Below are positions 22,356-37,167 of a stretch of DNA of 37,695 bases, one piece after another. Position 1 is the first letter of the stretch. Each line of letters begins with the position of its first letter. The position numbers and the translations under genes are program-made. Source of the DNA: Lysobacterales bacterium (GTDB lineage: Bacteria; Pseudomonadota; Gammaproteobacteria; Xanthomonadales; SZUA-36); NCBI GenBank assembly GCA_013042915.1, contig JABDPF010000002.1, positions 1-37,695 of the forward strand, in the 5' to 3' direction. Under the pieces are notes generated by a model, which had not been told where the DNA came from, ran no database searches, and worked only from the letters and a program-made list of their open reading frames with translations.

Positions 22356-23780
22356 TCACTCTTCTTTGACCAGGCTCCAGGCAAAGGCCGACAGGGCCAG
22401 ACTCGCGGCCGAGATCTGGAAGATGACGCCCTTATCCGGTGCGCGGCTGACGAACAACGCAATGCCCAGGCTGACAATGAGCTGCGGTAACACCACCGAC
22501 AGGTTGAACAAGCCCATGTAAAGGCCCATCCGGGCCTGGTTGACCTTCTGAGACACGATCGCGAACGGCAGGCTGACAATGGAGGCCCAGCCGATGCCGA
22601 CGACGGCCATCAACAAGTAGACCTGCCCGGGCGTGGCGCCGTAAAAATAGAGGCCCACGTAGCCGGCGGTCATGAAGGCGAGGCTGATCGCGTGAGTTCT
22701 GATCCGACCAATCCGTTTGGCCATCGGCATCAGGACGAATGCGGGTAACAAAGCGCCGACGGCATTCAATACGAGGAAACTGGTCGAACCCACACGGCCC
22801 AAATCGATGTCCGAGAGCTGCGGCAATGCCTGTTGCAGGTAGACGACGAGGAACACGAAGGTGGTCTGGATGCCCACCCAGCTAAAAGAATGGGCCGCGA
22901 TGACTTTGCGAAAGGCGGCGCGGCCGGGACGGCCCGCTACTTCCTTTTCAGCCAGGGCCTGCGCCATCAGACCAACGGTGGCGATGCCGCAGACGATTTC
23001 GGCGTAGTAGTGTTCGACCTCGATACCCGCCAACCGCAGGCCCATTGCATAAATATCGTACACCAGGAAGGCCCACAAGGGGCGTATGGCCAGCAACATG
23101 TTGCGCAGTGAATCATCATTACCTGGGTCGTCGCCTCGGTTGACGCTTGCGTCCGCCGACGCGTCCAATTCACGCGGCTCGGTGACGAACAGCGGTGGAA
23201 TGATGGAGAACAGCAGCACGATCACCGCGCCGGCGTAGATCAAAACGTAGTTGTTCCACAGCGCACCGACCGCGTAAGCTGCCACGCCGAAGGTGCCCGA
23301 GATCGTCTGCATCCAGGTATAACCCTTGGTGCGCTCGTCGCCATCATCTGTGACGTCGGCGATAATCGAACGCGTCGGGTTGAAGCTGACGTTGATCGCC
23401 AGGTCGAGCGTCAGGGCCACAGCGATAGCCACGCCCAGTATTCCGCCGATACCCATGCCGGCCGAGATCACGTCCAGGTGGGGCAGCGCCAGCAGCATCA
23501 GCGCGGCCAGCACGCCTCCGACCAGGATGAAGGGACGCCTGCGGCCGTTCCAGAACCACACGCGGTCGCTGATCACCCCGATTAGCACCTGTCCGATGAT
23601 GCCGGCCAGCGGCCCCGCGGCCCACACCAGGCCGACGTCGTGGATGTCGAGCTTGTACTGCGTTACGAGAATCCAGCTCAGCGCCGATATCTGGATCGAC
23701 AGGGCGAAGCCCATAGCCGTCGAGGGCAGGCTGATCAGCGCGAAAAACGCGGCGGTCTTGTTTTTCTGGAAAGCGAGCAT
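22356..23780 (-). CDS. MFS sugar transporter (SLC45/GPH-like)
   Basis: 474 residues with about 12 predicted helices. The loop after helix 2 carries the MFS signature as SDRVWFWNGRRRPFILVGG, and the N-terminus LPSTAMGFALSIQISALSWIL resembles the sucrose/maltose transporters of the SLC45 group. The long cytoplasmic middle loop is acidic (DASADASVNRGDDPGNDD). Transporters of this type are commonly encoded in maltodextrin loci of environmental Gammaproteobacteria, and the neighbourhood (LacI regulator, TonB receptor, pullulanase) supports oligosaccharide/H+ uptake into the cytoplasm. A palindromic operator is 48-65 bp upstream of the start. No clear Shine-Dalgarno sequence is visible before ATG 23780. 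Confidence 0.82.
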   Translation of the reverse strand: MLAFQKNKTAAFFALISLPSTAMGFALSIQISALSWILVTQYKLDIHDVGLVWAAGPLAGIIGQVLIGVISDRVWFWNGRRRPFILVGGVLAALMLLALPHLDVISAGMGIGGILGVAIAVALTLDLAINVSFNPTRSIIADVTDDGDERTKGYTWMQTISGTFGVAAYAVGALWNNYVLIYAGAVIVLLFSIIPPLFVTEPRELDASADASVNRGDDPGNDDSLRNMLLAIRPLWAFLVYDIYAMGLRLAGIEVEHYYAEIVCGIATVGLMAQALAEKEVAGRPGRAAFRKVIAAHSFSWVGIQTTFVFLVVYLQQALPQLSDIDLGRVGSTSFLVLNAVGALLPAFVLMPMAKRIGRIRTHAISLAFMTAGYVGLYFYGATPGQVYLLMAVVGIGWASIVSLPFAIVSQKVNQARMGLYMGLFNLSVVLPQLIVSLGIALFVSRAPDKGVIFQISAASLALSAFAWSLVKEE

Positions 23781-23895: not shown

Positions 23896-24930
23896 TCAGC
23901 CTTGTCTTCCGCCGCAGGACCCGCGCACGACCATCGAGATCGGTATGCGTGGTGAGGTGACGTCCTCGCCCTCGATCATTTTAAGCAGGTTGCCCATCAG
24001 GGCATGCGCGGCCAGGCGCGTGTCCTGGCGAACGGTGGTCAGCGCGGGGCTGAAGTAGGTGGCGGCTGGCAGGTCGTCGAAACCTACCAGCGAGACCTGG
24101 TCCGGTATCGCGATGTTGTTCTTTTTAAGGCACTTGATCACGCCAAACGCGATCAGGTCGCTGGCAGCAAAAATCGCGTCGAATTCGACCCCGCTGTCGA
24201 GGAGTTTCTGCGTGGCGTCGTAGGCGGAAAGCTCGAGGTTGTCCGTTTGCATCAGAAGTTGAGGGTCCGGCTCGATGGCCGCCTTTTCGAGCGCGCGGCA
24301 ATAGCCCTGGTAGCGTAGCTTGAACTCGGGCGCGTCATCCGAGGCGCTGCCGATATAAGCGACCCGGCGGCGGCCGATGCCCAGCAGGTGCCGGGTGGCG
24401 AGCTCACCGCCCCTCGGGTTGTCGCAGCCGATCGCGTGTCCTTCGAGTTCCGGCACGGTGGCACCCCAGATCGTGAACGGCAGGCCCTCCTCGCGCAGGC
24501 GCTGAAGCTTGTCGGAGATTCGGCCGTAATCGCCGTAGCCCAGCAGGATGATCCCGTCCGCCCGGTTGCTTACGACGTATTCGTTCAGCCAGTCATCGCT
24601 GAGCTGTTGGAACGAGACCAGTACGTCGTATGACTGCCGGGTGGCGTACCGCGTAATGTGGCCGAGAAGGGTGAGGAAGAATGGGTTGATCTGCGAGTCG
24701 TCCGAGGTCGGGTCTTCGAAAAACAGCAAGGCGATGGTATTGCTGCGTTGCGACCGCAGCCCGGCCGCGCTGCGATCGACGCGGTAGTTCATCTCGCGCG
24801 CGATGCGCTGAACTTTTTCACGGGTTTCCGGGTTGACCAAGGGACTGTTGCGCAGCGCGCGGGAGACCGTGGCCTGGGAAACCCCGGCCCGCTTCGCAAT
24901 ATCGAACGATGTGGTCTTGCCTGAGCCCAT
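23896..24930 (-). CDS. LacI-family transcriptional regulator
   Basis: 344 residues from ATG 24930. This start gives the usual helix-turn-helix right at the N-terminus (SFDIAKRAGVSQATVSRALRNSPLVNPETREKV) plus the hinge helix (RSAAGLRSQRSNTIAL); the longer frame back to 25272 would run antisense into the halogenase gene and is rejected. The periplasmic-binding-protein-like sensor domain occupies about residues 65-340, with DDLPAATYFSPALTTVRQD as the late ligand-contact segment. The protein should bind a sugar effector and control the two flanking units. It is read toward the MFS gene, with a 115-bp gap that holds the operator, so MFS can be expressed separately. Confidence 0.9.
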   Translation of the reverse strand: MGSGKTTSFDIAKRAGVSQATVSRALRNSPLVNPETREKVQRIAREMNYRVDRSAAGLRSQRSNTIALLFFEDPTSDDSQINPFFLTLLGHITRYATRQSYDVLVSFQQLSDDWLNEYVVSNRADGIILLGYGDYGRISDKLQRLREEGLPFTIWGATVPELEGHAIGCDNPRGGELATRHLLGIGRRRVAYIGSASDDAPEFKLRYQGYCRALEKAAIEPDPQLLMQTDNLELSAYDATQKLLDSGVEFDAIFAASDLIAFGVIKCLKKNNIAIPDQVSLVGFDDLPAATYFSPALTTVRQDTRLAAHALMGNLLKMIEGEDVTSPRIPISMVVRGSCGGRQG

Positions 24931-25027: not shown

Positions 25028-26539
25028 ATGAAAGACAGAGCGCTACGCAGCATCGCCATCATCGGGGGCGGTACGGCCGGCTGGATGACCGCCGCCGCGC
25101 TGGCCAACATGCTGCACGGGAAATGCGGCGTGACGCTGGTCGAGTCGGAAGCAATCGGTACGGTCGGTGTAGGCGAGGCCACGATCCCCCCGCTCAAGCG
25201 CTTCAACGGCGAGCTCGGTATCGACGAGAATGATTTCATGCGCGCGGTGCAGGGCAGTTTCAAGCTGGGCATCGAATTCGTCGACTGGGCCCGGAAGGGG
25301 CACCGCTACATGCACCCGTTCGGCCAGTTCGGGGCCGATTTCGACTCCATACCGGTACACCAGTACTGGCTGAAAGCGCGCAGCGAGGGAGAGGTCACGC
25401 CGCTTGGCGATTATTCGGTGGCCAACGTGGCCGCCCGCGAGGGCCGCTTTCAGCGACCGACCAAGGACCCCCGCCTGGTCCAATCTACATTCGACTACGC
25501 CTACCACCTCGACGCCGGCTTGTACGCGCGCTACCTGCGCCACTACTCGGAACAGCGCGGCGTCGAGCGCGTGGAAGGGCGCGTTGCCCACGTGGCGCAA
25601 CACAATGAAAGCGGCAACATCACCGGCGTCGTGCTGGATGACGGGCACACGGTGGAGGCGGATTTCTTCGTCGATTGCAGCGGTTTTCGCGGCCTGCTGA
25701 TCGAGGGCGCCCTCAACTCGGGCTACGAGGACTGGACCCACTGGCTACCCTGCGACCGCGCGGTTGCGGTGCCCTGCGCCAGGGGTGGCGAGTTCACGCC
25801 CTATACGCGCTCCACCGCGCACGACGCAGGCTGGCAGTGGCGCATCCCGTTACAGCATCGCACGGGCAATGGCTACGTGTACTGCAGCCAGTTCCTGGAC
25901 GAGGATGCCGCAGCGGCGAAGTTGCTGGCCAACCTCGACGGCCGCGCACTGGCCGATCCCCTGTTCCTGAAATTCCAGACTGGCCGGCGGCGGATGTTCT
26001 GGAGCCGCAACTGCGTCGCGATCGGGTTGTCCGCCGGGTTTTTGGAACCGCTGGAGTCGACCAGCATCCACCTGATTCAGAGTGCCATCAGCCGCCTGCT
26101 GGCCCTATTTCCCGACCGCGACCTGGATCCGCTGGCTATCGAGGAATACAACCGGATTACCGCCAACGAGTATGAACGGGTGCGCGATTTCCTGATCCTG
26201 CACTACCACGCCACAGAGCGCGAAGATTCCGGTCTTTGGCGATATTGCGCCGGCATGACCATCCCAGACGAGTTGCAATACAAGATGGACCACTTCCGCC
26301 GCTATGGGCGCCTGGTGTCGACCGGTACCGAGTTGTTTCAAAACCCCAACTGGCTGGCCGTGCACATTGGTCAGTTCAACTGGCCGGAGCGCTACGATCC
26401 ACTGGTGGACGAGCGTGGCATCGACGGGGCCAAGCGGCTTGCCAGCCTGCGCCGCGTGATCCGCGAAGCGGTCAACGCAATGACCACGCACCAGATGTAC
26501 GTGCGAAAAAACTGTCGCTCGATTGATGCGATGAGCTGA
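25028..26539 (+). CDS. Tryptophan halogenase family protein 1
   Basis: 503 residues. FAD-dependent halogenase of the PrnA/RebH type: FAD-binding GGGTAGWM (residues 13-20), GVGEATIP (47-54), the catalytic Lys79 in GSFKLGIEF (same number as in PrnA), the family signature WxWxIP (Trp269-Gln-Trp271-Arg-Ile-Pro274), and Glu343-Ser344 in EPLEST at the active site. Enzymes of this family make hypohalous acid from FADH2, O2 and halide, then transfer it via Lys to an aromatic ring. No signal peptide is visible, so it acts in the cytoplasm if at all; a flavin reductase is not encoded here. Its start is 97 bp from the divergent LacI gene. Substrate unknown; genes of this type often accompany TonB receptors. 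Confidence 0.9.
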
Positions 26540-26580
26540 ATCCCGGCCAGTTTTTTTTTGGAAAATTGAATAAGAACAGC

Positions 26581-26591
26581 AGGGAATCCCT
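26581..26591. repeat. Short perfect inverted repeat
   Basis: AGGGAATCCCT is an 11-bp inverted repeat (5-bp arms, single central base) just upstream of the receptor promoter. A nine-base T run lies before it (26551-26559). It may be a minor protein-binding site or chance. Confidence 0.3.
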
Positions 26592-26599
26592 CGTTTTCC

Positions 26600-26629
26600 T
26601 TGCGAAACGACTGAATACGTTTGCATAAT
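26600..26629 (+). promoter_or_regulatory. Putative sigma-70 promoter of the TonB receptor gene
   Basis: TTGCGA (26600-26605) and CATAAT (26624-26629) are separated by 18 bases. The spacer holds the left half of the LacI-type operator (26612), which fits repression by blocking polymerase. A 5' leader of about 80 bases would precede ATG 26715, where AAGGTG is the ribosome-binding site. Confidence 0.5.
26612..26625. promoter_or_regulatory. LacI-type operator, half-conserved (site 2)
   Basis: TGAATACGTTTGCA shares its first eight bases and three of the last six with the core TGAATACGAATTCA of sites 1 and 3. It overlaps the spacer and -10 of the receptor promoter. The right arm is degenerate, so affinity may be lower. 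Confidence 0.55.
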
Positions 26630-26714
26630 CTTGCCCGGCAGAGGCTTAGGTCTATAGAGTGCGCAATCAAAGAACCACCAAAACTCAGGCACACAACACT
26701 CGCAAGGTGAAACT

Positions 26715-29426
26715 ATGAAAAGCAATGGCACGATTCGCCGCAAGGAACTGGCAGCCGCCATCTCGATGTTGCTGGCGCTTCCCGGAATAGCCCTCGCGCA
26801 GGACCAGGACTCTGAAGGCCAGGCCGCCGACGATGAAATGATTGCCGAGGAAGTCATCGTTACCGGTATTCGCCGCGGTCTGATGAACTCCGTCGACATC
26901 AAGGGCACCTCGACCTCCATTGTCGAAGCCATTTCCGCCGAGGAAATCGGCAAGCTGCCCGACGTCAGTATCACGGACTCCCTCGCGCGCTTACCGGGCG
27001 TCACGGCCCAGCGCCTCAATGGCCGTAGCCAAGTGCTCAGCGTTCGCGGCCTCGGCCCCGACTTTACCACCGCGCTGCTCAATGGCCGCCCACAGGTCAG
27101 CTCGGGCGACAACCGCGGCGTCGAGTTCGACCAATACCCATCTGAAATGATCAGCCAGGCGATCGTGTATAAGACACCCAATGCCACGCTGATGGGTCAG
27201 GGGCTGGCCGGCACTGTCGACATGCAGACGATTCGCCCCCTGGAATACGGCAAGCAGGCTCTCGTGGCCAATGCCCGTTACGTTTGGAACGACATCACCG
27301 CCCTGAATAACGATGCTTCCGACGACGGTTGGCGCGGCAGCGTAACCTACGTCGACCAGTTCATGGACGACACCGTCGGTGTGGCCTTCGGTTTTGCTTA
27401 CGCCGATACGCCGACCCAGAGTGAGCGTTTCAATGCCTGGGGTTACCCGGATGTCAACGGTGACGCCGTCATCGGTGGTGCAAAACCCTACGCTCAGAGC
27501 AACGAGTTGGAGCGGACCGGCATCATCGGCACCTTGGAGTGGCAGGTCAGCGACCGCGTTCGCACCTCTGTCGACCTCTACTACACTGAGTTCGAGGAGA
27601 CCCAGTACCTGCGCGGAATCGAGTTTCCGCTGTTTTGGTCGTCAGCGGCACTGCAGCCCGGCTACACGGTCGAGGACGGACTGGTCGTCAGCGGCACCTT
27701 CGACAACGTCAAGGGCGTGATGCGTAACGACATCAACAACCGTGACTCCGAGCTGACGGCCGCTGGCTGGAACCTAGAGTGGGACGTGGCAGAGGGTTGG
27801 GTGGTGACCACCGACCTGAGCTACTCCAAGATGGACCGCAAGGACGTCCTTCTGGAAACCTATTCCGGCACAGGGCCGAACGGCTTGCCCGTGTTTGACA
27901 GCCTGAGCTTCGACATGCGCGACGGCAAGGGCGCCCTATTCTCCTCCAGCCTCGACTACACCGACCCGAACCTCGTAATGCTGACCAGCCCTCAGGGTTG
28001 GGGTGGCGACATCATTCCGGGCGGCCAGCTGGGCTACAACAACAGCCCGAGCATCGAGGATGAACTGACCACGCTGGACCTGCGCGCCCTGTACGAAGTT
28101 GGCGGCGACTGGCTGTCCAGCATCGAGTTTGGCGTTAACTATCAGACCCGAAAAAAGTACAAGGTCGCGGACGAGTGGTTCGTCGGCCTGGGTAACGGCG
28201 ACATCTCCGCCCCGCTGCCGGCAGAAACCGGTCTGACCAACCTTTCCCACATCGGCATCCCGGGCATGGTCACTTACGACCCGATCGCTTCGATTAGTAG
28301 CGGTATCTTCACGCTGGTGCGTAATCCGAACGCCGATGTCGTGATCAAGAGCTGGACGGTTGAAGAGGACCTGACTTCGGCCTTCGCCATGGTCAACTTC
28401 GACACCGACGTGGGCGACGTAATGGTTTACGGTAACTTCGGCTTGCAGTATGTGCGGACCGATCAAAGCTCGTCAGCCGCTTCGGCCTCTGGTACCGGCG
28501 ACGACGTGGCTTTGTTCCCAACCTCCGGCGGCGACGACTACACGGAGTGGCTGCCCAGCATGAACGTCACCTTCGACGTGGGCAACAGCAACCTGATTCG
28601 CTTCGCCTACGCCCGCACGCTGGCCCGGGCGCGCATGGACCAGATGCGCGCCAGCCTAAACTGGGGCTTCGATACCTCCAAGGTCGACGAGACCGACATC
28701 AACAATTCGCCCTGGGGCGGCAGCGGTGGCAACCCGGAACTGCGTCCCTGGATCGCAAACGCCTTTGACCTCTCCTACGAAAAATACCTGGATGACGGGA
28801 TCGGCTACGTGGCCGTCGCGGGTTTCTACAAGGACCTCGACTCCTGGGTGAATGACGCCCCGCAGGTGTATGACTTCACCGGTTTCCCGACCGGCGGATT
28901 CGACCCGGTTCTCAGGGAGGGCCTGGTCAGCATTCCGCAGAACCAGGGCGGAGGCAAGATCTACGGCTTCGAAGTGGCAGGTGCACTCGATTTCGGCTAC
29001 TTCGCTGATTCACTAACAGGACTAGGCGTGATCGCCAGCGCTTCGTTTACCAAAAGCGACGTGACCGTGAACGAGGAGGAAATCACCCTTCCCGGCCTGT
29101 CCGAGGATGTCTACAACCTGACCGCGTACTATGAGAACGAGCGCTTCTCCGTTCGCGCCAGCGCCCGCTACCGTTCCGAGTTCCTCGGCGAGGTATCCGG
29201 CTTCGGCGCCGGCCGAGAATTCCGTACCGTTAACGAGGAAACGGTCGTTGATGGCCAGGCCAGCTGGTTCTTCGGTGGCAAACTGACCGGTCTAAGCCTG
29301 CTGTTCCAGGTCTACAATCTGACCGACGAGGCCTTCACGACCTTCGCCAATGACGATACGCGTCAAATCATCGACTACCAGCGCTACGGCCGTACTTACC
29401 TGCTTGGCGCTTCTTACAACTGGTAG
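26715..29426 (+). CDS. TonB-dependent outer-membrane receptor
   Basis: 903 residues. Signal peptide to about residue 29 (GIALAQ), then a short periplasmic stretch with the TonB-box-like EEVIVTGIRRG (about 45-55), the plug domain (EEIGKLPDVSITDSLARLPGV; QVLSVRGLGPDFTTALLNGR) and a large beta-barrel to the terminal aromatic residue (YLLGASYNW). The wording GIRRG...KLPDVSITDSLARLPGV is typical of TonB receptors for carbohydrates in Proteobacteria. It should import oligosaccharides, powered by TonB-ExbBD encoded elsewhere. A LacI-type operator lies in its promoter, and halogenase genes flank it on the same strand. A strong terminator follows the stop. Confidence 0.92.
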   Translation: MKSNGTIRRKELAAAISMLLALPGIALAQDQDSEGQAADDEMIAEEVIVTGIRRGLMNSVDIKGTSTSIVEAISAEEIGKLPDVSITDSLARLPGVTAQRLNGRSQVLSVRGLGPDFTTALLNGRPQVSSGDNRGVEFDQYPSEMISQAIVYKTPNATLMGQGLAGTVDMQTIRPLEYGKQALVANARYVWNDITALNNDASDDGWRGSVTYVDQFMDDTVGVAFGFAYADTPTQSERFNAWGYPDVNGDAVIGGAKPYAQSNELERTGIIGTLEWQVSDRVRTSVDLYYTEFEETQYLRGIEFPLFWSSAALQPGYTVEDGLVVSGTFDNVKGVMRNDINNRDSELTAAGWNLEWDVAEGWVVTTDLSYSKMDRKDVLLETYSGTGPNGLPVFDSLSFDMRDGKGALFSSSLDYTDPNLVMLTSPQGWGGDIIPGGQLGYNNSPSIEDELTTLDLRALYEVGGDWLSSIEFGVNYQTRKKYKVADEWFVGLGNGDISAPLPAETGLTNLSHIGIPGMVTYDPIASISSGIFTLVRNPNADVVIKSWTVEEDLTSAFAMVNFDTDVGDVMVYGNFGLQYVRTDQSSSAASASGTGDDVALFPTSGGDDYTEWLPSMNVTFDVGNSNLIRFAYARTLARARMDQMRASLNWGFDTSKVDETDINNSPWGGSGGNPELRPWIANAFDLSYEKYLDDGIGYVAVAGFYKDLDSWVNDAPQVYDFTGFPTGGFDPVLREGLVSIPQNQGGGKIYGFEVAGALDFGYFADSLTGLGVIASASFTKSDVTVNEEEITLPGLSEDVYNLTAYYENERFSVRASARYRSEFLGEVSGFGAGREFRTVNEETVVDGQASWFFGGKLTGLSLLFQVYNLTDEAFTTFANDDTRQIIDYQRYGRTYLLGASYNW

Positions 29427-29453
29427 GCCGAAACCGGCCCTCGGGCCATTACT

Positions 29454-29492
29454 AAAACCCCCGCTCTTTTCGTCTTAGCGGGGGTTTTTTTT
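29454..29492 (+). terminator. Intrinsic terminator after the TonB receptor gene
   Basis: CCCCCGCT (29458-29465) pairs with AGCGGGGG (29477-29484); flanking AAAA and T tract extend the stem, and eight Ts (29485-29492) follow. It separates the receptor transcript from the second halogenase gene. Confidence 0.92.
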
Positions 29493-29586
29493 GGCCCCCG
29501 AACCGGCCCGGTTTTGGTTGACATCCTCGCTAAGGCCCGACGTCATTTCAACGCGGATACACCCGGCCCGGGGGCGGCGCTGCGAC

Positions 29587-29592
29587 TATACT
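29587..29592 (+). promoter_or_regulatory. Candidate -10 element for halogenase 2
   Basis: TATACT is 55 bases before ATG 29648 in a 221-base gap that otherwise contains only the terminator. TTGACA occurs at 29518-29523 but is too far for the same promoter, and the -35 region proper is GC-rich and unlike the consensus. The gene has its own promoter in any case, because the terminator stands before it. Confidence 0.3.
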
Positions 29593-29647
29593 GAGGAGTA
29601 TTAGCTAGAGCCATTTACTTAGCTCGCCACGGTCATGGAGGCATCAG

Positions 29648-31153
29648 ATGAGTAGAGACCCGATTCGCAAGGTAGTCATCGTGGGCGGCGGCACGGCTGG
29701 GTGGATGGCGGCTGCGGTGTTATCGGAGTTTTTCAAAGGGATGCTGACGGTTGAGCTCATCGAGTCGGACGATATCGGAACCGTGGGCGTCGGTGAAGCC
29801 ACCATTCCCCAAATCCGCTTGTTCACTGGCCTGTTGGGCATCGACGAGGCCGAGATGCTGAGCGCCACGCGCGGAACCTTCAAGCTGGGCATCCAGTTCA
29901 GCGACTGGGGCCGCCTGGACGACACGTATATGCACGCCTTCGGCGCGATCGGGCGCAAGCTGGGTTCACTCGATTTTCATCACTACTGGCTCAAGGCGCG
30001 GGCCGTGGGTCAGGCGAGTAGTCTGTGGAAGTACTCGCTCAACGAGACAGCGGCCGTTGCCAACCGCTTCTCACACCTCGACAACGTGCCCGACATGCAC
30101 CTGGGCGGCTTGGTTTACGCCTACCACTTCGACGCGGCGCTGTTTGCGAAGTACCTGCGCGGCTACAGCGAGCGGCGCGGCGTGCGGCGCAGGGAAGGCA
30201 AAGTCGTCGACGTGGCGATCGGCAAGGAAAACGGGTTCATCGAAGCCGTCACTCTGGAGGGCGGAAAGCGCGTCGGTGGCGACCTGTTCATCGACTGCAC
30301 CGGTTTTCGCGGCCTGTTGATCGAGGATGCCCTGGAAACGGGCTACGAGGACTGGTCCCTTTGGCTGCCCTGCGACCGGGCGGTGGCGGTGCCGACCGCC
30401 CACTCCGGACCGATGCGGCCTTACACCACGGCCCGGGCGCTCGATTGCGGCTGGCAGTGGCGCATACCGTTGCAGCACCGCGTGGGTAACGGGCATGTGT
30501 ATGCAAGCCAGTACATGAGCGACGACGAGGCGGTCTCGGTTCTGCTGGATAACGTGCAGGGAGAAACACTGGACGAGCCCCGGTTGCTGAAGTTCAAAAC
30601 CGGGCGCCGCAAGAAGTTCTGGAACCGCAACTGCGTGGCCCTGGGCCTGGCCAGCGGATTTATGGAGCCGCTCGAATCGACCAGCATCCACCTGATCCAG
30701 ACTGGTATCAGCCGGCTGCTCGAGTACTTCCCGCGGAAAGGATTCGAACAGGTCGATATCGACGAGTACAACCGTCGTTGCACCTGGGAGTTCGAGCGTA
30801 TCCGCGATTTCCTGATCCTGCACTACCATGCCAACCAACGCGACGATAGCCAGTTCTGGATCGACCGCCGGGAACTGCCCGTACCGACTGAGCTACACCG
30901 TCGTACCGACCTGTTCCTGGCCAACGGCCGCATCCACCGGGAGTTCGACGAACTCTTCACCGAAGCCGCCTGGTTGCAGGTCATGGTGGGCCAGGGCATT
31001 CTGCCCGCCGGGTGGCACCCACTGGCCGACCGCATCGACGAGGGCCAGATGGGCCGTTTCCTGACCAGTATCCAGACCATCATCGCCGCCACCGTCGACA
31101 AGCTCCCGGGCCACGAAGACTACGTCAAGAAATACTGCGCCGCCCCGGATTAG
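29648..31153 (+). CDS. Tryptophan halogenase family protein 2
   Basis: 501 residues, a paralogue of the gene at 25028: the two align with no gap over at least the first 350 residues by eye. The same catalytic elements fall at the same numbers: GGGTAGWM 13-20, Lys79 in GTFKLGIQF, Trp269-x-Trp271-x-Ile-Pro274 and Glu343-Ser344 in EPLEST. The protein therefore seems competent for FADH2-dependent halogenation. Differences cluster in the 90-150 segment and C-terminus, which could change the substrate pocket. GGAGG (29638-29642) is six bases from the ATG. It lies between the receptor terminator and a convergent small lipoprotein gene. Physiological substrate unknown. Confidence 0.9.
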   Translation: MSRDPIRKVVIVGGGTAGWMAAAVLSEFFKGMLTVELIESDDIGTVGVGEATIPQIRLFTGLLGIDEAEMLSATRGTFKLGIQFSDWGRLDDTYMHAFGAIGRKLGSLDFHHYWLKARAVGQASSLWKYSLNETAAVANRFSHLDNVPDMHLGGLVYAYHFDAALFAKYLRGYSERRGVRRREGKVVDVAIGKENGFIEAVTLEGGKRVGGDLFIDCTGFRGLLIEDALETGYEDWSLWLPCDRAVAVPTAHSGPMRPYTTARALDCGWQWRIPLQHRVGNGHVYASQYMSDDEAVSVLLDNVQGETLDEPRLLKFKTGRRKKFWNRNCVALGLASGFMEPLESTSIHLIQTGISRLLEYFPRKGFEQVDIDEYNRRCTWEFERIRDFLILHYHANQRDDSQFWIDRRELPVPTELHRRTDLFLANGRIHREFDELFTEAAWLQVMVGQGILPAGWHPLADRIDEGQMGRFLTSIQTIIAATVDKLPGHEDYVKKYCAAPD

Positions 31154-31698: not shown

Positions 31699-34428
31699 TT
31701 GAACACCTCACGTTTCATGGTAGTTGGCGGGCTGCACCGGGCTGCGTGGGTCGTGCTGGGCCTGGCGGGATTGATGCAGTTGCTTGCTGTCCCGGTTGCC
31801 GCCATGCCAGCGGAAGACCTGCGCGAAGCCCGCGCCCATTGGCTCGCCGAGGACACCATCGCCTGGCGGCCAGCGGTGGAAGGCGCCGTCCGGCTGCATT
31901 TCAGTCTCGATGCGCCGCTCGAGCCCGCGCTGATCGGCAACGAGACCGTGGAATTGCGTGCAAAGGGCATTATCAGCGGCGATCTGCTGGATAAATATCC
32001 GCACCTTGCAGGAACTCCAGTTTTTCAAATCCCACGACCTGCCCTCGAGTTGATCCCGGCCATCCTGCGCGGTCACTTCGTGGTATCAGCCGTCGGTCCC
32101 CACGGAGGGCTATTGGACGCCACCGCGCTGCAACCGGCGGGCGTGCTGGACGATCTCTACGCTCACGACGGCGACCTGGGCGTCGTGTTCGAGAACGGCG
32201 TACCGTCGCTCCGCGTCTGGGCGCCCACCGCGCGTGCCGTGCGTCTGCTGCTGTTCGACGATTCCGGCCCGGGAGGCGAGCCCGTGCAATCCCTGCCGAT
32301 GCAGCGTGGTCCCGCCACGGGCACCTGGTCCATCGAGGGCCGGGCGGATTGGGATCGCAAGTTCTACCTCTACGAGGTGGAGGTATTCGTTCGCCGCACC
32401 GGGCGCTTCGAACTCAACCGGGTAACCGATCCGTATTCGCACGGCCTGGCGACGGACAGCCGCCGCTCGCAGATCGTCGATCTATCAGATGAGGATCTGC
32501 TCCCTGCCAACTGGCAGGTGGTGAAAAAGCCGGCACTCGATGCGCACGAAGACATCGTGCTGTACGAGTTGCACGTGCGTGATTTCAGCATCGACGACGC
32601 GCTGGTACCGCCAAGGCAGCGCGGTACCTTCGCCGCGTTCTCATTGGACGACAGCCACGGCCTGCGCCACCTGGACGCTCTGGCTGCTTCGGGCCTCACT
32701 CACGTGCACCTGCTGCCGGCCTTTGACTGCGCGACCATCCCCGAGGATCCCGCGAGCCGGCTAAGCCCGCCCGCCCTCGGCGGCTTCGCGTCCGACTCGC
32801 CTCGCCCGCAGGAAGAGATCGGCAAGGTCCGCGCCCGCGACGCCTTCAACTGGTGCTACGACCCCTTCCATTACACGGTGCCCGAGGGCAGCTACGCCAC
32901 CGACCCGGACGGCGTGACCCGCATCCGCGAGTTTCGCGGGATGGTGACGGCGCTCAACGCACGCGGCCTGCGCGTGGTGATGGACGTGGTCTACAACCAC
33001 ACCCCGGCCAGCGGCCAGGCCGTGACCTCGGTGCTGGACCGGATCGTGCCGGATTACTACCAGCGCCTCGACGCGCAGGGCCGGGTCGAGACCAGCACCT
33101 GCTGCGCCAATACCGCCAGCGAAAACGCGATGATGGAAAAGCTGATGCTGGACTCGCTGCTCACCTGGGCCCGGCACTACCGTATCGACGGATTCCGTTT
33201 CGACCTGATGGGCCACCACAGCCGCGGCAACATCGAAAAAGCGCGCGACGCACTCCAGGCCCTGAGCCTGGAGCAAGACGGGGTCGACGGCCGCGCAATC
33301 TGCCTCTACGGCGAGGGCTGGAACTTCGGCGAAGTCGCCGACGACGCGCGTTTCGTGCAAGCCTCGCAAGCACGCATGGGGATGGGCAGCGGCGTGGGAA
33401 CCTTCAACGACCGCCTCCGCGATGCAGTACGCGGCGGTGCGCACGATGACCGTGGCCTCGAACACGTGCGCAGCCAGGGGTTCGCCAACGGACTGTACAC
33501 CGACCCCAACCGGGAAAACGAGGGCGGCGATGAAGAGCGCTTGGAACTGCTGCAGCTCACCGACCTCGTCCGCGCGGGCCTCGCCGGAAGCCTTCGAGAC
33601 TACCGCTTCATCAACCACCGGGGCCTGGAGGTTGCCGCGAGCGAGATCGACTACCACGGTCAGGGTGCCGCCTACGCCAGTGACCCGCAGGAAGTCATCA
33701 ACTATGTGGCGGCGCACGACAACGAGACGCTGTTCGATATCAACCAGTACAAGCTGCCGCTCTCGACCTCCATGGACGACCGGGTGCGTGCCGTGAACCT
33801 GGCCAACAGCATCGTAGCCCTGGCCCAGGGCGTTCCGTTTTTCCACGCCGGGCAGGACATGCTGCGATCGAAATCCCTCGACCGCAACTCCTACGACTCG
33901 GGCGACTGGTTCAACCAGCTTGACTTCAGCTACCGCGACAACGGCTGGCCCCGCGGACTGCCCCCTGCCTGGGACAACGAGGCCAACTGGCTGCAAGCGG
34001 GCCCACTGCTGGCGCGGCCGGAACTGGCGCCCGCGCCCCGCCACATTCGCGCGGCCGTGACGCACTTGCGCGAAGTGCTCAAAATCCGGAAGTCATCGCC
34101 GCTCTTTCGCCTGCGCGACGCGGCGGCTATTCGTTTGGCGTTGCGGTTCCACAACACCGGGCCGGAGCAGCTGGCCGGACTGATCGTGATGAGTCTTGAA
34201 GACGAGCGCCACGGCCGGTTCGTCGTGCTGTTCAATACAAGCCCTCAGGCGCAAACCTTCCCGTTTCCGCACACCCGGGGATATGAACTGCATCCTGTGC
34301 AGCAGGCCTCGGCCGATCCCGTGGTCAGAACCGCACGCCACGACCCACGGGCCTCCGTGTTCGAAGTCCCCGGGCGCACGACGGCCGTGTTCATCTCACG
34401 GACTCTGCCCGGAAGCGCTTTTCCTTGA
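31699..34428 (+). CDS. Exported pullulanase-type alpha-1,6-glucosidase (GH13)
   Basis: 909 residues from TTG 31699, chosen because GGAG lies six bases upstream and the start gives MNTSRF before the hydrophobic signal (AAWVVLGLAGLMQLLAVPVAAM); ATG 31717 is the alternative and lacks a ribosome-binding site. Domains: N-terminal pullulanase module (about 30-150), CBM48-like SLRVWAPTARAVRLLLFDD (about 170), GH13 barrel (about 290-740) and a C-terminal DUF3372-type region. GH13 catalytic residues are visible: Asp502 in GFRFDLMGHH (nucleophile), Glu539 in YGEGWNFG (acid/base), Asp674 in AAHDNETLFD; region I is DVVYNHT. It cleaves alpha-1,6 branches of pullulan, starch or glycogen fragments outside the cytoplasm. 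No lipobox, so periplasmic or secreted. Confidence 0.9.
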   Translation: MNTSRFMVVGGLHRAAWVVLGLAGLMQLLAVPVAAMPAEDLREARAHWLAEDTIAWRPAVEGAVRLHFSLDAPLEPALIGNETVELRAKGIISGDLLDKYPHLAGTPVFQIPRPALELIPAILRGHFVVSAVGPHGGLLDATALQPAGVLDDLYAHDGDLGVVFENGVPSLRVWAPTARAVRLLLFDDSGPGGEPVQSLPMQRGPATGTWSIEGRADWDRKFYLYEVEVFVRRTGRFELNRVTDPYSHGLATDSRRSQIVDLSDEDLLPANWQVVKKPALDAHEDIVLYELHVRDFSIDDALVPPRQRGTFAAFSLDDSHGLRHLDALAASGLTHVHLLPAFDCATIPEDPASRLSPPALGGFASDSPRPQEEIGKVRARDAFNWCYDPFHYTVPEGSYATDPDGVTRIREFRGMVTALNARGLRVVMDVVYNHTPASGQAVTSVLDRIVPDYYQRLDAQGRVETSTCCANTASENAMMEKLMLDSLLTWARHYRIDGFRFDLMGHHSRGNIEKARDALQALSLEQDGVDGRAICLYGEGWNFGEVADDARFVQASQARMGMGSGVGTFNDRLRDAVRGGAHDDRGLEHVRSQGFANGLYTDPNRENEGGDEERLELLQLTDLVRAGLAGSLRDYRFINHRGLEVAASEIDYHGQGAAYASDPQEVINYVAAHDNETLFDINQYKLPLSTSMDDRVRAVNLANSIVALAQGVPFFHAGQDMLRSKSLDRNSYDSGDWFNQLDFSYRDNGWPRGLPPAWDNEANWLQAGPLLARPELAPAPRHIRAAVTHLREVLKIRKSSPLFRLRDAAAIRLALRFHNTGPEQLAGLIVMSLEDERHGRFVVLFNTSPQAQTFPFPHTRGYELHPVQQASADPVVRTARHDPRASVFEVPGRTTAVFISRTLPGSAFP

Positions 34429-34569: not shown

Positions 34570-34608
34570 ATCGCGACGAGGACGAGCCCAGACTGAAAGG
34601 AGAGAATG

Positions 34609-35187
34609 ATGAGAAATCCCGTGGACCACGATGTCCAGAACGTTTTCCGGAAGCGTTGGAGCCCTTATGCCTACGACCCGGATCGGGACGTGAGCAGCGA
34701 ACAGCTCAAAAGCCTGTTCGAGGCGGCGCGCTGGGCCATGTCTTCGTTCAACGCCCAGCCCTGGCGGTATATCGTGGGCGTGAGAGGTCGCAGCGACGAC
34801 ATTTGGAAGGGCGTGTATGAAACCCTGGTCGATGGCAACCGCGAATGGGCCAGGAATGCACCGGTCCTGGCGTTAGGCCTGGCCGAATTGAATTACGAAC
34901 ACAACGGCAAGCCCAACCGCCACGCGGCCCATGACCTGGGTGCCGCTTCGGCCAGCCTGGCACTGGAGGCGGCGGCCCGCGGCCTGGCCGTGCACCAGAT
35001 GGGCGGATTCAGTGTAGACCGCGCGCGCGAATTGTTCGACCTGCCGGACGGCGTCGAGCCATACACCGCGATGGCGATTGGCTATCCGGCCGAGCGCGGC
35101 ACAGGTGAGGGCGAGCTGGAGAAACGTGACAGCAAACCACGCCAGCGCAAGGCCCTTAATGAACTCGTAATCCGCGGCGGTTTCTAG
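34609..35187 (+). CDS. Nitroreductase family protein
   Basis: 192 residues from ATG 34609, six bases after AAGGAG; the ATG three bases earlier is closer than the optimum. FMN-dependent nitroreductase-like flavoprotein: RWSPYAYDPD (FMN phosphate contacts, usual R-R/S-pattern), AARWAMSSFNAQPWRYIV (the S-xx-N-QPW signature), AHDLGAASASLALEAAARGLAVHQMGGF, and AIGYPAE near the end. A soluble dimer would use NAD(P)H to reduce nitroaromatics, quinones or other acceptors; the natural substrate is unknown. The stop overlaps the stop of the convergent Nramp-like gene by four bases, so the two transcripts converge with no spacer. Confidence 0.9.
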   Translation: MRNPVDHDVQNVFRKRWSPYAYDPDRDVSSEQLKSLFEAARWAMSSFNAQPWRYIVGVRGRSDDIWKGVYETLVDGNREWARNAPVLALGLAELNYEHNGKPNRHAAHDLGAASASLALEAAARGLAVHQMGGFSVDRARELFDLPDGVEPYTAMAIGYPAERGTGEGELEKRDSKPRQRKALNELVIRGGF

Positions 35188-36510: not shown

Positions 36511-37167
36511 ATGCAGATGGGACGAGCGAAAAACGGAGTCTTTGGATGGCGCAACCACAGCATGTTCGGGCTGGTTGTCGCGGGGTTGCTGTTGAGCAGC
36601 ACGGCTGTCGCTCGGGACGGCACCGACGCGGAGTATCTCTGGATCCAGGACCCCTGGACGGGGGAGTCGGTGCTGACCGCCGTGCGGGCACCCGACTACA
36701 GCCTTTGGGACCCGACCCAGATCAGCGATTACCAGGCTGCGCGGAACGCGGATTACCCGCCACCGCTGGCGATTCTCACTATCGATGCCCTCGACATTCA
36801 GGTTCCGGTTTGGAACGGCGCGGAAGAACACGTGCTTGACCGCGGGGCTGGCCGAATCAAGGGGATGGCGAAACCGGGGGAGGAAGGCAATTTCGGAATC
36901 TCTGCGCACCGCGATAGCTTTTTCCGTGCGCTGAAAGACATCGAGCAGGGCACCGAGATTGTCGTGCAAACAACGCATGGCGTGGACCGCTACGCCGTCA
37001 GCGAAATCGAGATTGTTCCAAAACATGATTCGTCCGTATTGGAACTGACGGACGACAAGCGCCTGACCCTGGTCACGTGCTATCCCTTCTACCACGTGGG
37101 CCACGCGCCGGAGCGCTACATTATTACGGCCCTGCCCCTTTTGGCGAAAGCCCCTGATGGGCAGTGA
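36511..37167 (+). CDS. Gram-negative sortase
   Basis: 218 residues from ATG 36511 (or ATG 36517). Signal/anchor helix at about residues 17-35. The sortase fold begins near residue 84 (PLAILTIDALDIQVPVW). Catalytic residues are His133 (GISAHRDSFF), Cys190 (TLVTCYPF) and Arg202 (APERYII), the class D-like arrangement of proteobacterial 'marine' sortases. These transpeptidases act in the periplasm on a partner protein with a C-terminal sorting motif. In related genomes the partner gene is next to the sortase; none is visible here, although the gene on the right is cut. The TATAAC at 36485 could be its -10 element. Confidence 0.9.
   Translation: MQMGRAKNGVFGWRNHSMFGLVVAGLLLSSTAVARDGTDAEYLWIQDPWTGESVLTAVRAPDYSLWDPTQISDYQAARNADYPPPLAILTIDALDIQVPVWNGAEEHVLDRGAGRIKGMAKPGEEGNFGISAHRDSFFRALKDIEQGTEIVVQTTHGVDRYAVSEIEIVPKHDSSVLELTDDKRLTLVTCYPFYHVGHAPERYIITALPLLAKAPDGQ

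What the first reader, a model, noticed from the sequence alone, without database searches (positions are those of the whole stretch)
25028..31153. Twin flavin-dependent halogenases bracket a TonB receptor in a glucan locus
Two PrnA-like paralogues keep all catalytic residues at the same numbers (Lys79, WxWxIP at 269-274, Glu343) yet no aromatic biosynthesis gene or flavin reductase is near. Association of PrnA-like genes with TonB receptors in carbohydrate loci has been noticed in Xanthomonas, but the role is unresolved. Possible roles: halogenation of a signalling or receptor-related aromatic, or a flavin-dependent reaction other than halogenation. The retention of two active-looking copies argues for distinct substrates. 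This is the best candidate for an undescribed system here.
Basis: partly seen in the sequence, partly recalled or inferred. Interest (0 to 1): 0.8.

Follow-up and report, generated by a model that had tools for sequence, protein, structure and literature searches.

The report
Halogenase pair serving a sugar receptor
Two halogenase-type enzymes flank the gene for an outer-membrane sugar receptor, and the same pairing recurs with receptors for many different sugars, which suggests that these enzymes, whose natural target is unknown, act on the receptor system and not on a natural product.

Summary
Two intact flavin-dependent halogenase (FDH) genes (503 and 501 aa) flank a TonB-dependent receptor (TBDR) in an alpha-glucan locus with a LacI regulator, a sugar-type MFS and a pullulanase.

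They are not recent twins. H2 belongs to an old clade (31 leaves; 24 directly downstream of a window-type receptor). H1 belongs to another clade whose adjacent receptors are mostly of other types. Lys79 is kept in 169/169 aligned relatives and Glu343 in 168/169.

The link to receptors is very specific. In 80 H1-like loci the gene beside the FDH block is a TBDR in 76/166 cases, against 1/148 one gene further out. It recurs with alpha-glucan, sucrose/fructan, GH43/GH9, fucosidase and hexosaminidase genes, so the sugar is not the common factor. The closest relatives that I found of the solved "orphan" enzymes Xcc4156 and BrvH sit in such loci too.

The most likely role, inferred and not shown, is cytoplasmic oxidation or halogenation of an aromatic side chain of the partner receptor before export. 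Trp429, the only invariant Trp in 25 aligned receptors, is a candidate site, but its link to FDH rests on one change on the tree. The substrate is unproven.

The parts
25028..26539 (+). H1, flavin-dependent halogenase family protein, 503 aa, no leader before the Rossmann motif GGGTAG at residue 13
   Evidence: H1 clade of 59 leaves, support 0.998
26715..29426 (+). TonB-dependent receptor, 903 aa, TIGR01782, MalA-like by context; invariant Trp429 in a long loop
29648..31153 (+). H2, flavin-dependent halogenase family protein, 501 aa; AlphaFold2 model pLDDT 90.1
   Evidence: H2 clade of 31 leaves, support 0.991
23896..24930 (-). LacI-family regulator (ORF open to 25272; the LacI HTH match begins at residue 124, so the true start is probably near 24930)
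22356..23780 (-). MFS transporter (MFS_1/MFS_2; weak GPH-sucrose match, below that model's cut-off)
31699..34428 (+). Pullulanase-type alpha-1,6-glucosidase
   Evidence: TIGR02103 1028 bits
29458..29492 (+). Terminator-like inverted repeat (loop of about 11, longer than the scan allows) and T run between receptor and H2, seen by eye; H2 may be transcribed separately
   Evidence: Sequence printed; place

Best explanation
H1 and H2 are active-site-complete FDHs of the Xcc4156/BrvH group, dedicated to the TonB-dependent receptor between them. They work in the cytoplasm with FADH2 from a general reductase and use their open active site to halogenate (bromide preferred, by analogy) or otherwise oxidise an indole/aromatic side chain of the receptor polypeptide before it is exported, tuning ligand binding or stability of the mature receptor. 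Shown: intact genes with the catalytic residues, two separate clades, gene-to-gene coupling to receptors whatever the sugar. Inferred: cytoplasmic location (no leader seen in the sequence; no predictor run), that the receptor is the substrate, the chemistry, the residue (Trp429 is a candidate only) and the effect on uptake.
For: (1) Adjacency: 74 of 80 H1-like loci have a TBDR within 5 kb of an FDH; the gene beside the FDH block is a TBDR in 76/166, against 1/148, 1/136 and 1/117 at 2-4 genes out. In 41 genomes (own and relatives), 23 of 44 FDH clusters lie within 5 kb of a TIGR01782 receptor against 0.67 expected (largest of 200,000 simulations: 6). In one Asticcacaulis genome (that of L057, G806), 11 of 13 FDH clusters are directly beside a receptor or in its operon. 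(2) Cargo changes, receptor stays: GH13/GH97, GH32/amylosucrase, GH68, GH43/GH9, GH95/alpha-N-acetylglucosaminidase, GH20, GH3. (3) The FDH clade follows the receptor class: 24 of 31 H2-clade genes are directly downstream of a window-type receptor. (4) Catalytic residues kept. (5) The nearest solved enzymes have an open site, do not halogenate free Trp, and a peptide substrate has been proposed for them (PMC7336383, passages); their closest relatives found here sit in receptor loci. (6) Companions of peptide/protein-oxygenase type (Cupin_8/JmjC, 2OG-FeII_Oxy_5) or SapC occur in 36 of 121 FDH loci and 0 of 55 receptor loci without FDH (flanks shorter in the latter). (7) Precedent: outer-membrane transporter CciT needs cytoplasmic dioxygenase CciO, while three other receptors do not (PMC11870441, passages and section 21).
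Against: No halogenated receptor has been shown, and none of this is biochemical. Window-type receptors exist in genomes where the searches used found no FDH (G036, G034 and the weaker G039; G589, G645, G669, G689), so the modification cannot be essential for the class. 19 of 50 receptors in the 398-genome sample had no listed FDH within 5 kb (a capped list). In the unselected relatives 16 of 43 FDH loci had no TBDR within 5 kb, some of them cut by contig ends. Some FDHs sit in alpha-glucan loci without a receptor in the stretch fetched (L121, L008, L028; L131, cut on one side). Trp429 is present in G589 without an FDH found and a Trp stands at the aligned position in FDH-free receptors of other classes (L162, L164); its absence maps to one change on the tree. 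Sec-exported receptors are reachable in the cytoplasm only before export. CciO's own substrate is unknown; its authors propose a siderophore-like, self-made compound as the cargo and leave several models open.
Confidence: 0.4

Rival explanations
1. The FDHs act on a small aromatic compound that enters through, or signals for, the receptor (for example an aglycone of a plant or algal glycoside), in the cytoplasm.
For: Xcc4156 and BrvH are active on free indole and indole derivatives in vitro (PMC7336383, passages). The receptor, MFS and LacI would form an import and sensing route.
Against: The sugar genes beside FDHs differ from locus to locus, and no aromatic catabolic or biosynthetic gene recurred among the neighbours that I identified. 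One receptor may have 2-4 FDHs.
Confidence: 0.25
2. The FDHs act on another envelope protein or peptide made with the receptor (SapC, TonB, a lipoprotein or a small peptide), not on the receptor itself.
For: SapC and Cupin_8 are in the same operon in the second locus of this genome. One FDH (L061) is next to a gene with a TonB C-terminal domain.
Against: SapC was found in 12 of 121 FDH loci only, and neither SapC nor Cupin_8 among the 20 window ORFs scanned; the receptor is by far the commonest neighbour.
Confidence: 0.15
3. The flavoproteins do not halogenate: they hydroxylate an aromatic residue or act as flavin-dependent redox sensors or assembly factors for the receptor.
For: In vitro halogenation of screening substrates does not prove the native reaction. 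Partner genes are hydroxylase-like.
Against: Lys79 (169/169), Glu343 (168/169) and the WxWxIP tryptophans (169 and 168 of 169) are kept, which a non-halogenating role would not be expected to require.
Confidence: 0.13
4. Ordinary natural-product halogenases that happen to lie here.
For: The family name, and divergent members outside receptor loci that sit near carbamoyltransferase or HlyD genes (L160, L158).
Against: Adjacency far above chance, and no biosynthetic gene was seen among the 20 window ORFs scanned.
Confidence: 0.03

Closest known systems
Xcc4156 (PDB 6y1w) and BrvH (6frl), orphan flavin-dependent halogenases
   Same: Fold (H2 model: TM 0.95 and 0.93; 50-51% and 44-45% identity), catalytic Lys/Glu/WxWxIP, no long free-Trp lid, native substrate unknown; their closest relatives found here sit in receptor loci.
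   Different: H1 and H2 are in clades tied to window-type and sucrose-type receptors; relatives of Xcc4156 are typically the last FDH of TBDR-(FDH)-(SapC)-Cupin_8-FDH operons, like L005:12767-14251 of this genome.
PrnA / RebH / PyrH free-tryptophan halogenases
   Same: Family PF04820, FAD site and catalytic residues.
   Different: About 30-36% identity; substrate lid segments absent in H1; no biosynthetic cluster seen.
CUT loci (carbohydrate utilisation with TBDR), e.g. the maltodextrin CUT locus of X. campestris and malA of Caulobacter (PMC1790865, passages)
   Same: TBDR, repressor, sugar transporter, glucan enzyme.
   Different: Two FDH genes beside the receptor; the word halogenase does not occur in that paper's main text.
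CciT-CciO receptor/dioxygenase pair of Caulobacter (PMC11870441)
   Same: One outer-membrane receptor served by one cytoplasmic oxidising enzyme encoded next door; specific to that receptor.
   Different: Fe(II)/2OG dioxygenase instead of FDH; iron instead of glucan; function shown genetically there, not here.

Membership tests
Flavin-dependent halogenase (PF04820) | FAD motif GxGxxG | tested here: met
   Residue 13 in both; 169/169 aligned FDHs (FDHs without such a motif were left out of that alignment, so this figure is partly by construction)
Flavin-dependent halogenase (PF04820) | Catalytic Lys (PrnA K79) and Glu (PrnA E346) | tested here: met
   K79 169/169, E343 168/169; mapping to PrnA by the alignment
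Flavin-dependent halogenase (PF04820) | WxWxIP motif | tested here: met
   WQWRIP 269-274; W269 169/169, W271 168/169, P274 158/169
Flavin-dependent halogenase (PF04820) | Halogenation activity with FADH2, O2 and halide | not testable with these tools
   Needs purified protein
Free-tryptophan halogenases (PrnA/RebH type) | C-terminal Trp-binding segment (PrnA Y443, E450, F454; their role is recalled, E450 and F454 are named as mutated positions in PDB titles) | tested here: not met
   These PrnA positions fall in segments missing from H1 in the alignment; H2 was not aligned to PrnA in print
Xcc4156/BrvH group | Closest structures and short substrate loops | tested here: met
   Ranks 1-7 of the fold search with H2 are chains of 6y1w, 9luq and 6frl; against BrvH and Xcc4156 H1 has no insertion longer than 6 residues
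Xcc4156/BrvH group | Bromination of indoles, none of free Trp | not testable with these tools
   Known for the relatives from PMC7336383 (passages) only
CUT locus (alpha-glucan) | TBDR, sugar regulator, inner-membrane transporter and glycoside hydrolase together | tested here: met
CUT locus (alpha-glucan) | Induction by, and uptake of, the glucan | not testable with these tools
   No expression data
CciT-CciO type pair | Fe(II)/2OG dioxygenase as the partner enzyme | tested here: not met
   The partners here are FDHs

The most novel reading that the evidence does not exclude
There is a general system of 'oxidative tailoring' of TonB-dependent receptors in Pseudomonadota: many receptors carry their own cytoplasmic FDH(s), often with a JmjC/Cupin_8 or 2OG-Fe(II) oxygenase and SapC, and these halogenate or hydroxylate defined aromatic residues of the receptor (Trp429 in a predicted extracellular loop here) before export. 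The orphan enzymes Xcc4156 and BrvH would be members, and halogenated outer-membrane proteins would be a new class of bacterial protein modification.
Probability: 0.3. Interest if true: 0.92.

Novelty: new variant of a known kind. Interest (0 to 1): 0.62.

Why it matters
A group of FDHs has solved members and in vitro activity but no known natural substrate. Their gene neighbourhood points to one specific, testable partner, the receptor next door, and away from natural-product searches. If right, it adds protein halogenation to bacterial envelope biology and would explain why one Asticcacaulis genome holds 18 BrvH-like FDH matches.

Tried and rejected
Local tandem duplication: rejected, H1 and H2 meet only in a 110-leaf node of the tree. 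Free-Trp halogenase: rejected for H1. Loss of catalytic residues in orthologues: not found, apart from one degenerate FDH (L085_8220). Nearby flavin reductase as partner: none in the window; the nitroreductase-like gene 34606-35187 was not pursued.

Trp429 as proof of substrate: rejected as proof. Among 73 window-type receptors, 59 of 60 with an FDH within 5 kb have the Trp and 5 of 13 without do (naive Fisher 8e-7), but the Trp state changes once on the tree, G589 has the Trp and no FDH was found there, and a Trp stands at the aligned position in FDH-free receptors of other classes. The first comparison mislabelled L017 and L019 as unlinked because their FDH is cut at the locus end; they count as linked. 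Rows dropped before counts: L119 and L123, taken as duplicates of L009 and L007 from contig length and scores (and later tables; they are still), L214, L217, L218, FDH ORFs of 900 bases or less or scoring 100 bits or less (this drops locus L126), and FDHs under 420 aa or without the FAD motif.

Operator search (AANCGNTT): 14 matches in the window against 7.8 expected, none in the gaps between LacI, H1, receptor, H2 and pullulanase. Promoter and terminator scans were at chance level. The paper that I recalled as discussing jumonji/cupin enzymes in such neighbourhoods (Iyer 2010) is not held, so it is recall only and not used.
Full report
The observation. The window lies in a 2.69 Mb draft genome (G000, 105 contigs, 96% complete). 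Two FDH genes, H1 (25028-26539) and H2 (29648-31153), flank a TonB-dependent receptor (26715-29426), all on the + strand. To the left, on the other strand, are a LacI regulator and an MFS transporter; to the right is a pullulanase. Both FDHs match PF04820 over nearly the whole profile (656.7 and 639.2 bits). K79, WQWRIP 269-274 and E343 stand at the same numbers in both. Counting along the printed alignment, H1 K79 falls on PrnA K79 and E343 on PrnA E346. Neither protein shows a leader before the Rossmann motif at residue 13, so both should be cytoplasmic (reading of the sequence; no signal-peptide program was run).

The rest of the genome. It has four FDHs: the two here and two in one operon on contig 5, in the order TBDR, FDH, SapC, Cupin_8/JmjC, FDH, LacI. 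Of 14 Plug-domain matches, the two in these loci have FDH neighbours. One Flavin_Reduct gene lies on another contig.

The FDHs are old paralogues, not twins. In a FastTree of 169 FDHs, H2 sits in a clade of 31 (support 0.991), 24 of them directly downstream of, and on the same strand as, a receptor of the window type. H1 sits in a clade of 59 (support 0.998) whose receptors, where adjacent, are mostly of other types, in loci with GH32, 2OG-FeII_Oxy_5 or other genes. Their common node holds 110 leaves. In the relatives, H2-type genes occur beside the receptor with no H1-type gene in the 15.6-19.5 kb fetched (L136, L142, L144). K79 is kept in 169/169 and E343 in 168/169.

How specific is the link to receptors? 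In the 80 loci found with H1 (the best 80 of 583 relatives), 74 have a TBDR within 5 kb of an FDH; of 132 FDHs, 75 lie within 500 bp and 124 within 5 kb. The six loci without are L047, L053 and L058 (FDH close to a contig end; L058 has a receptor 6.9 kb away), L008 and L028 (alpha-glucan loci with GH13 and GH97 genes) and L061 (beside a TonB_C gene). Counting genes outward from the FDH block, the first gene is a TBDR in 76/166, the second in 1/148, the third in 1/136 and the fourth in 1/117. In 41 genomes taken without regard to FDH clade, 44 stretches with FDHs were read; 43 hold an FDH over the size and score limits (L126 dropped). Of these 27 have a TBDR within 5 kb, and 41 of 58 FDHs do. 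Those without are of several kinds: cut by a contig end (for example L125, L139, L150, L131), divergent FDHs, or whole H2- or H1-like ones (L121, L133, L137, L154). Among the neighbours scanned were carbamoyltransferase, HlyD, RND, S9 peptidase, DUF885 and fatty-acid hydroxylase. Against TIGR01782 receptors over the cut-off, 23 of 44 FDH clusters are linked where 0.67 are expected under uniform placement (200,000 simulations, largest 6); 23 of 85 such receptors are linked, 62 are not. In a sample of 398 Pseudomonadota genomes, 45 hold a window-type receptor, 52 an H2-like FDH and 40 both (naive Fisher p about 1e-38, not corrected for kinship). 31 of 50 receptors have such an FDH within 5 kb. 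This is a lower bound, because the search scored at most three FDH candidates per genome: G430 counts as unlinked there, but its receptor has an FDH next door. In 274 genomes of the class the figures are 6, 7 and 5.

The sugar is not the common factor. Receptor-coupled FDHs lie beside GH13/GH97, GH32 with a 2OG-Fe(II) oxygenase, or amylosucrase, GH68 and alpha-galactosidase, GH43 and GH9, GH95 and alpha-N-acetylglucosaminidase, GH20 and GH3. In 10 of 10 named plasmid records that I opened (of 25 listed and 91 found), the FDH or its block is beside a TBDR or one gene away. In one Asticcacaulis genome (that of L057, handle G806) with 18 BrvH-like FDH matches, I read all 13 clusters: 11 are directly beside a receptor or in its operon, one is 4.7 kb away and one has none found.

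The orphan enzymes with structures belong to this group. The fold search with the H2 model (pLDDT 90.1) ranks 6y1w (Xcc4156), 9luq and 6frl (BrvH) first. Relatives of Xcc4156 were sought in 151 genomes of the order: 19 genomes matched at E <= 1e-170, 20 matches of 50-88% identity. I read ten of these loci widely (52-88%). Seven have a receptor of one type (TBDR_5) in the same operon: L284, L285, L286, L288, L289, L292 and L293, four of them (L285, L286, L292, L293) with a second FDH, SapC and Cupin_8 between (in L293 the last FDH is hidden in the script's table by an overlapping ORF). Three begin or end at a contig end just beyond Cupin_8 or SapC (L287, L290, L291); L290 has another receptor 4.9 kb away. 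The same operons appear in other relatives that I had read before (L127, L132, L135). The closest BrvH relative found in eight genomes (66%, L294) is 96 bp from a receptor. For Xcc4156 and BrvH the published text says that native substrates are unknown, that both substrate loops are short and the site open, that free Trp is not halogenated, and that a peptide substrate is possible (PMC7336383, passages). Whether Xcc4156 and BrvH themselves stand beside a receptor was not looked at.

What the enzymes most likely do. A partner that is constant while sugars, glycosidases and regulators change is best explained if the enzyme serves the receptor. FDH clades that follow receptor classes, several FDHs per receptor, and companions of peptide-oxygenase type (Cupin_8, 2OG-FeII_Oxy_5) or SapC in 36 of 121 FDH loci but 0 of 55 receptor loci without FDH (flanks up to about 10 kb and about 4 kb, so not fully comparable) fit enzymes that modify the receptor chain before export. 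A precedent for one receptor needing one cytoplasmic oxygenase is CciT-CciO. There the receptor is still made and placed without CciO, and the authors propose a self-made, catecholate-like cargo and leave several models open (PMC11870441, passages and section 21). That the receptor itself is the substrate is inference.

A candidate site and its limits. Among 25 aligned window-type receptors, all FDH-linked, Trp429 (consensus LTDPxGWG) is the only invariant Trp. By strand order in the receptor model (pLDDT 85.1) it lies in a long loop, 387-445, between long strands with short turns elsewhere, which I read as extracellular (inference from secondary structure, no coordinates seen). In a further set of receptors from the class and phylum samples, 24 of 24 with an FDH in the 1.5 kb flank have it; of ten others four have it and six, all of one family, do not. 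But across 73 receptors it changes once on the tree, it is kept in G589 where no FDH was found, and a Trp stands at the aligned position in FDH-free receptors of other classes. It may simply be a sugar-binding Trp.

Known or new. In the held open-access library I found no paper on the FDH-receptor pairing (as listings; PMC1790865, PMC2996990, PMC8269204 and PMC11337851 by passages). Most subscription papers are not held, so the pairing may be in print elsewhere. The enzymes are members of a known group; the receptor-dedicated system is, as far as I could search, undescribed. I file it as a new variant of a known kind.

Noticed in passing
L005:6250-15453 (contig 5 of the same genome): Second receptor locus: TBDR, FDH, SapC, Cupin_8/JmjC, FDH, LacI; the last FDH groups with the relatives of Xcc4156.
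   Followed up: yes
L259 (Pelagibacter phage HTVC008M) and Synechococcus phage hits: Phage-encoded FDHs (about 30% identity) overlap or adjoin a 2OG/phytanoyl-CoA dioxygenase gene (HTVC008M, Sf-CH11, Sf-CH1a), in HTVC008M between the two terminase genes; the same FDH plus 2OG-oxygenase pairing as in some receptor loci. TBDRs are known phage receptors (recalled), so a link is conceivable.
   Followed up: partly
Phage collection records MT835646.1 and MT837902.1: Two unannotated 'Bacteriophage sp.' records hold FDHs at 49-51% identity to H2, with two and three places each; they may be bacterial DNA rather than phage.
   Followed up: no
L061:10001-12815: An H1-type FDH directly upstream of a gene with a TonB C-terminal domain, with no receptor found in the 21.5 kb held.
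   Followed up: no
L284 (G726): The FDH closest to Xcc4156 (88% identity) is interrupted by a stop codon, while its TBDR and Cupin_8 neighbours remain.
   Followed up: no
window 36511-37167: Sortase (matches class D and class GN models, below their cut-offs) in a genome with outer-membrane receptors.
   Followed up: no
window 26591-26610: Inverted repeat TCGTTT-8-AAACGA upstream of the receptor start, a possible operator; none seen upstream of H1.
   Followed up: no
L256:6294-6989 and L258:8541-9257: DUF6445 genes beside receptor and FDH on Sphingomonas and Catenovulum plasmids; another possible companion family.
   Followed up: no
L088:3776-9626: The unlinked receptor on contig 10 stands divergently beside acyl-CoA dehydrogenase and APH-family kinase genes.
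   Followed up: no
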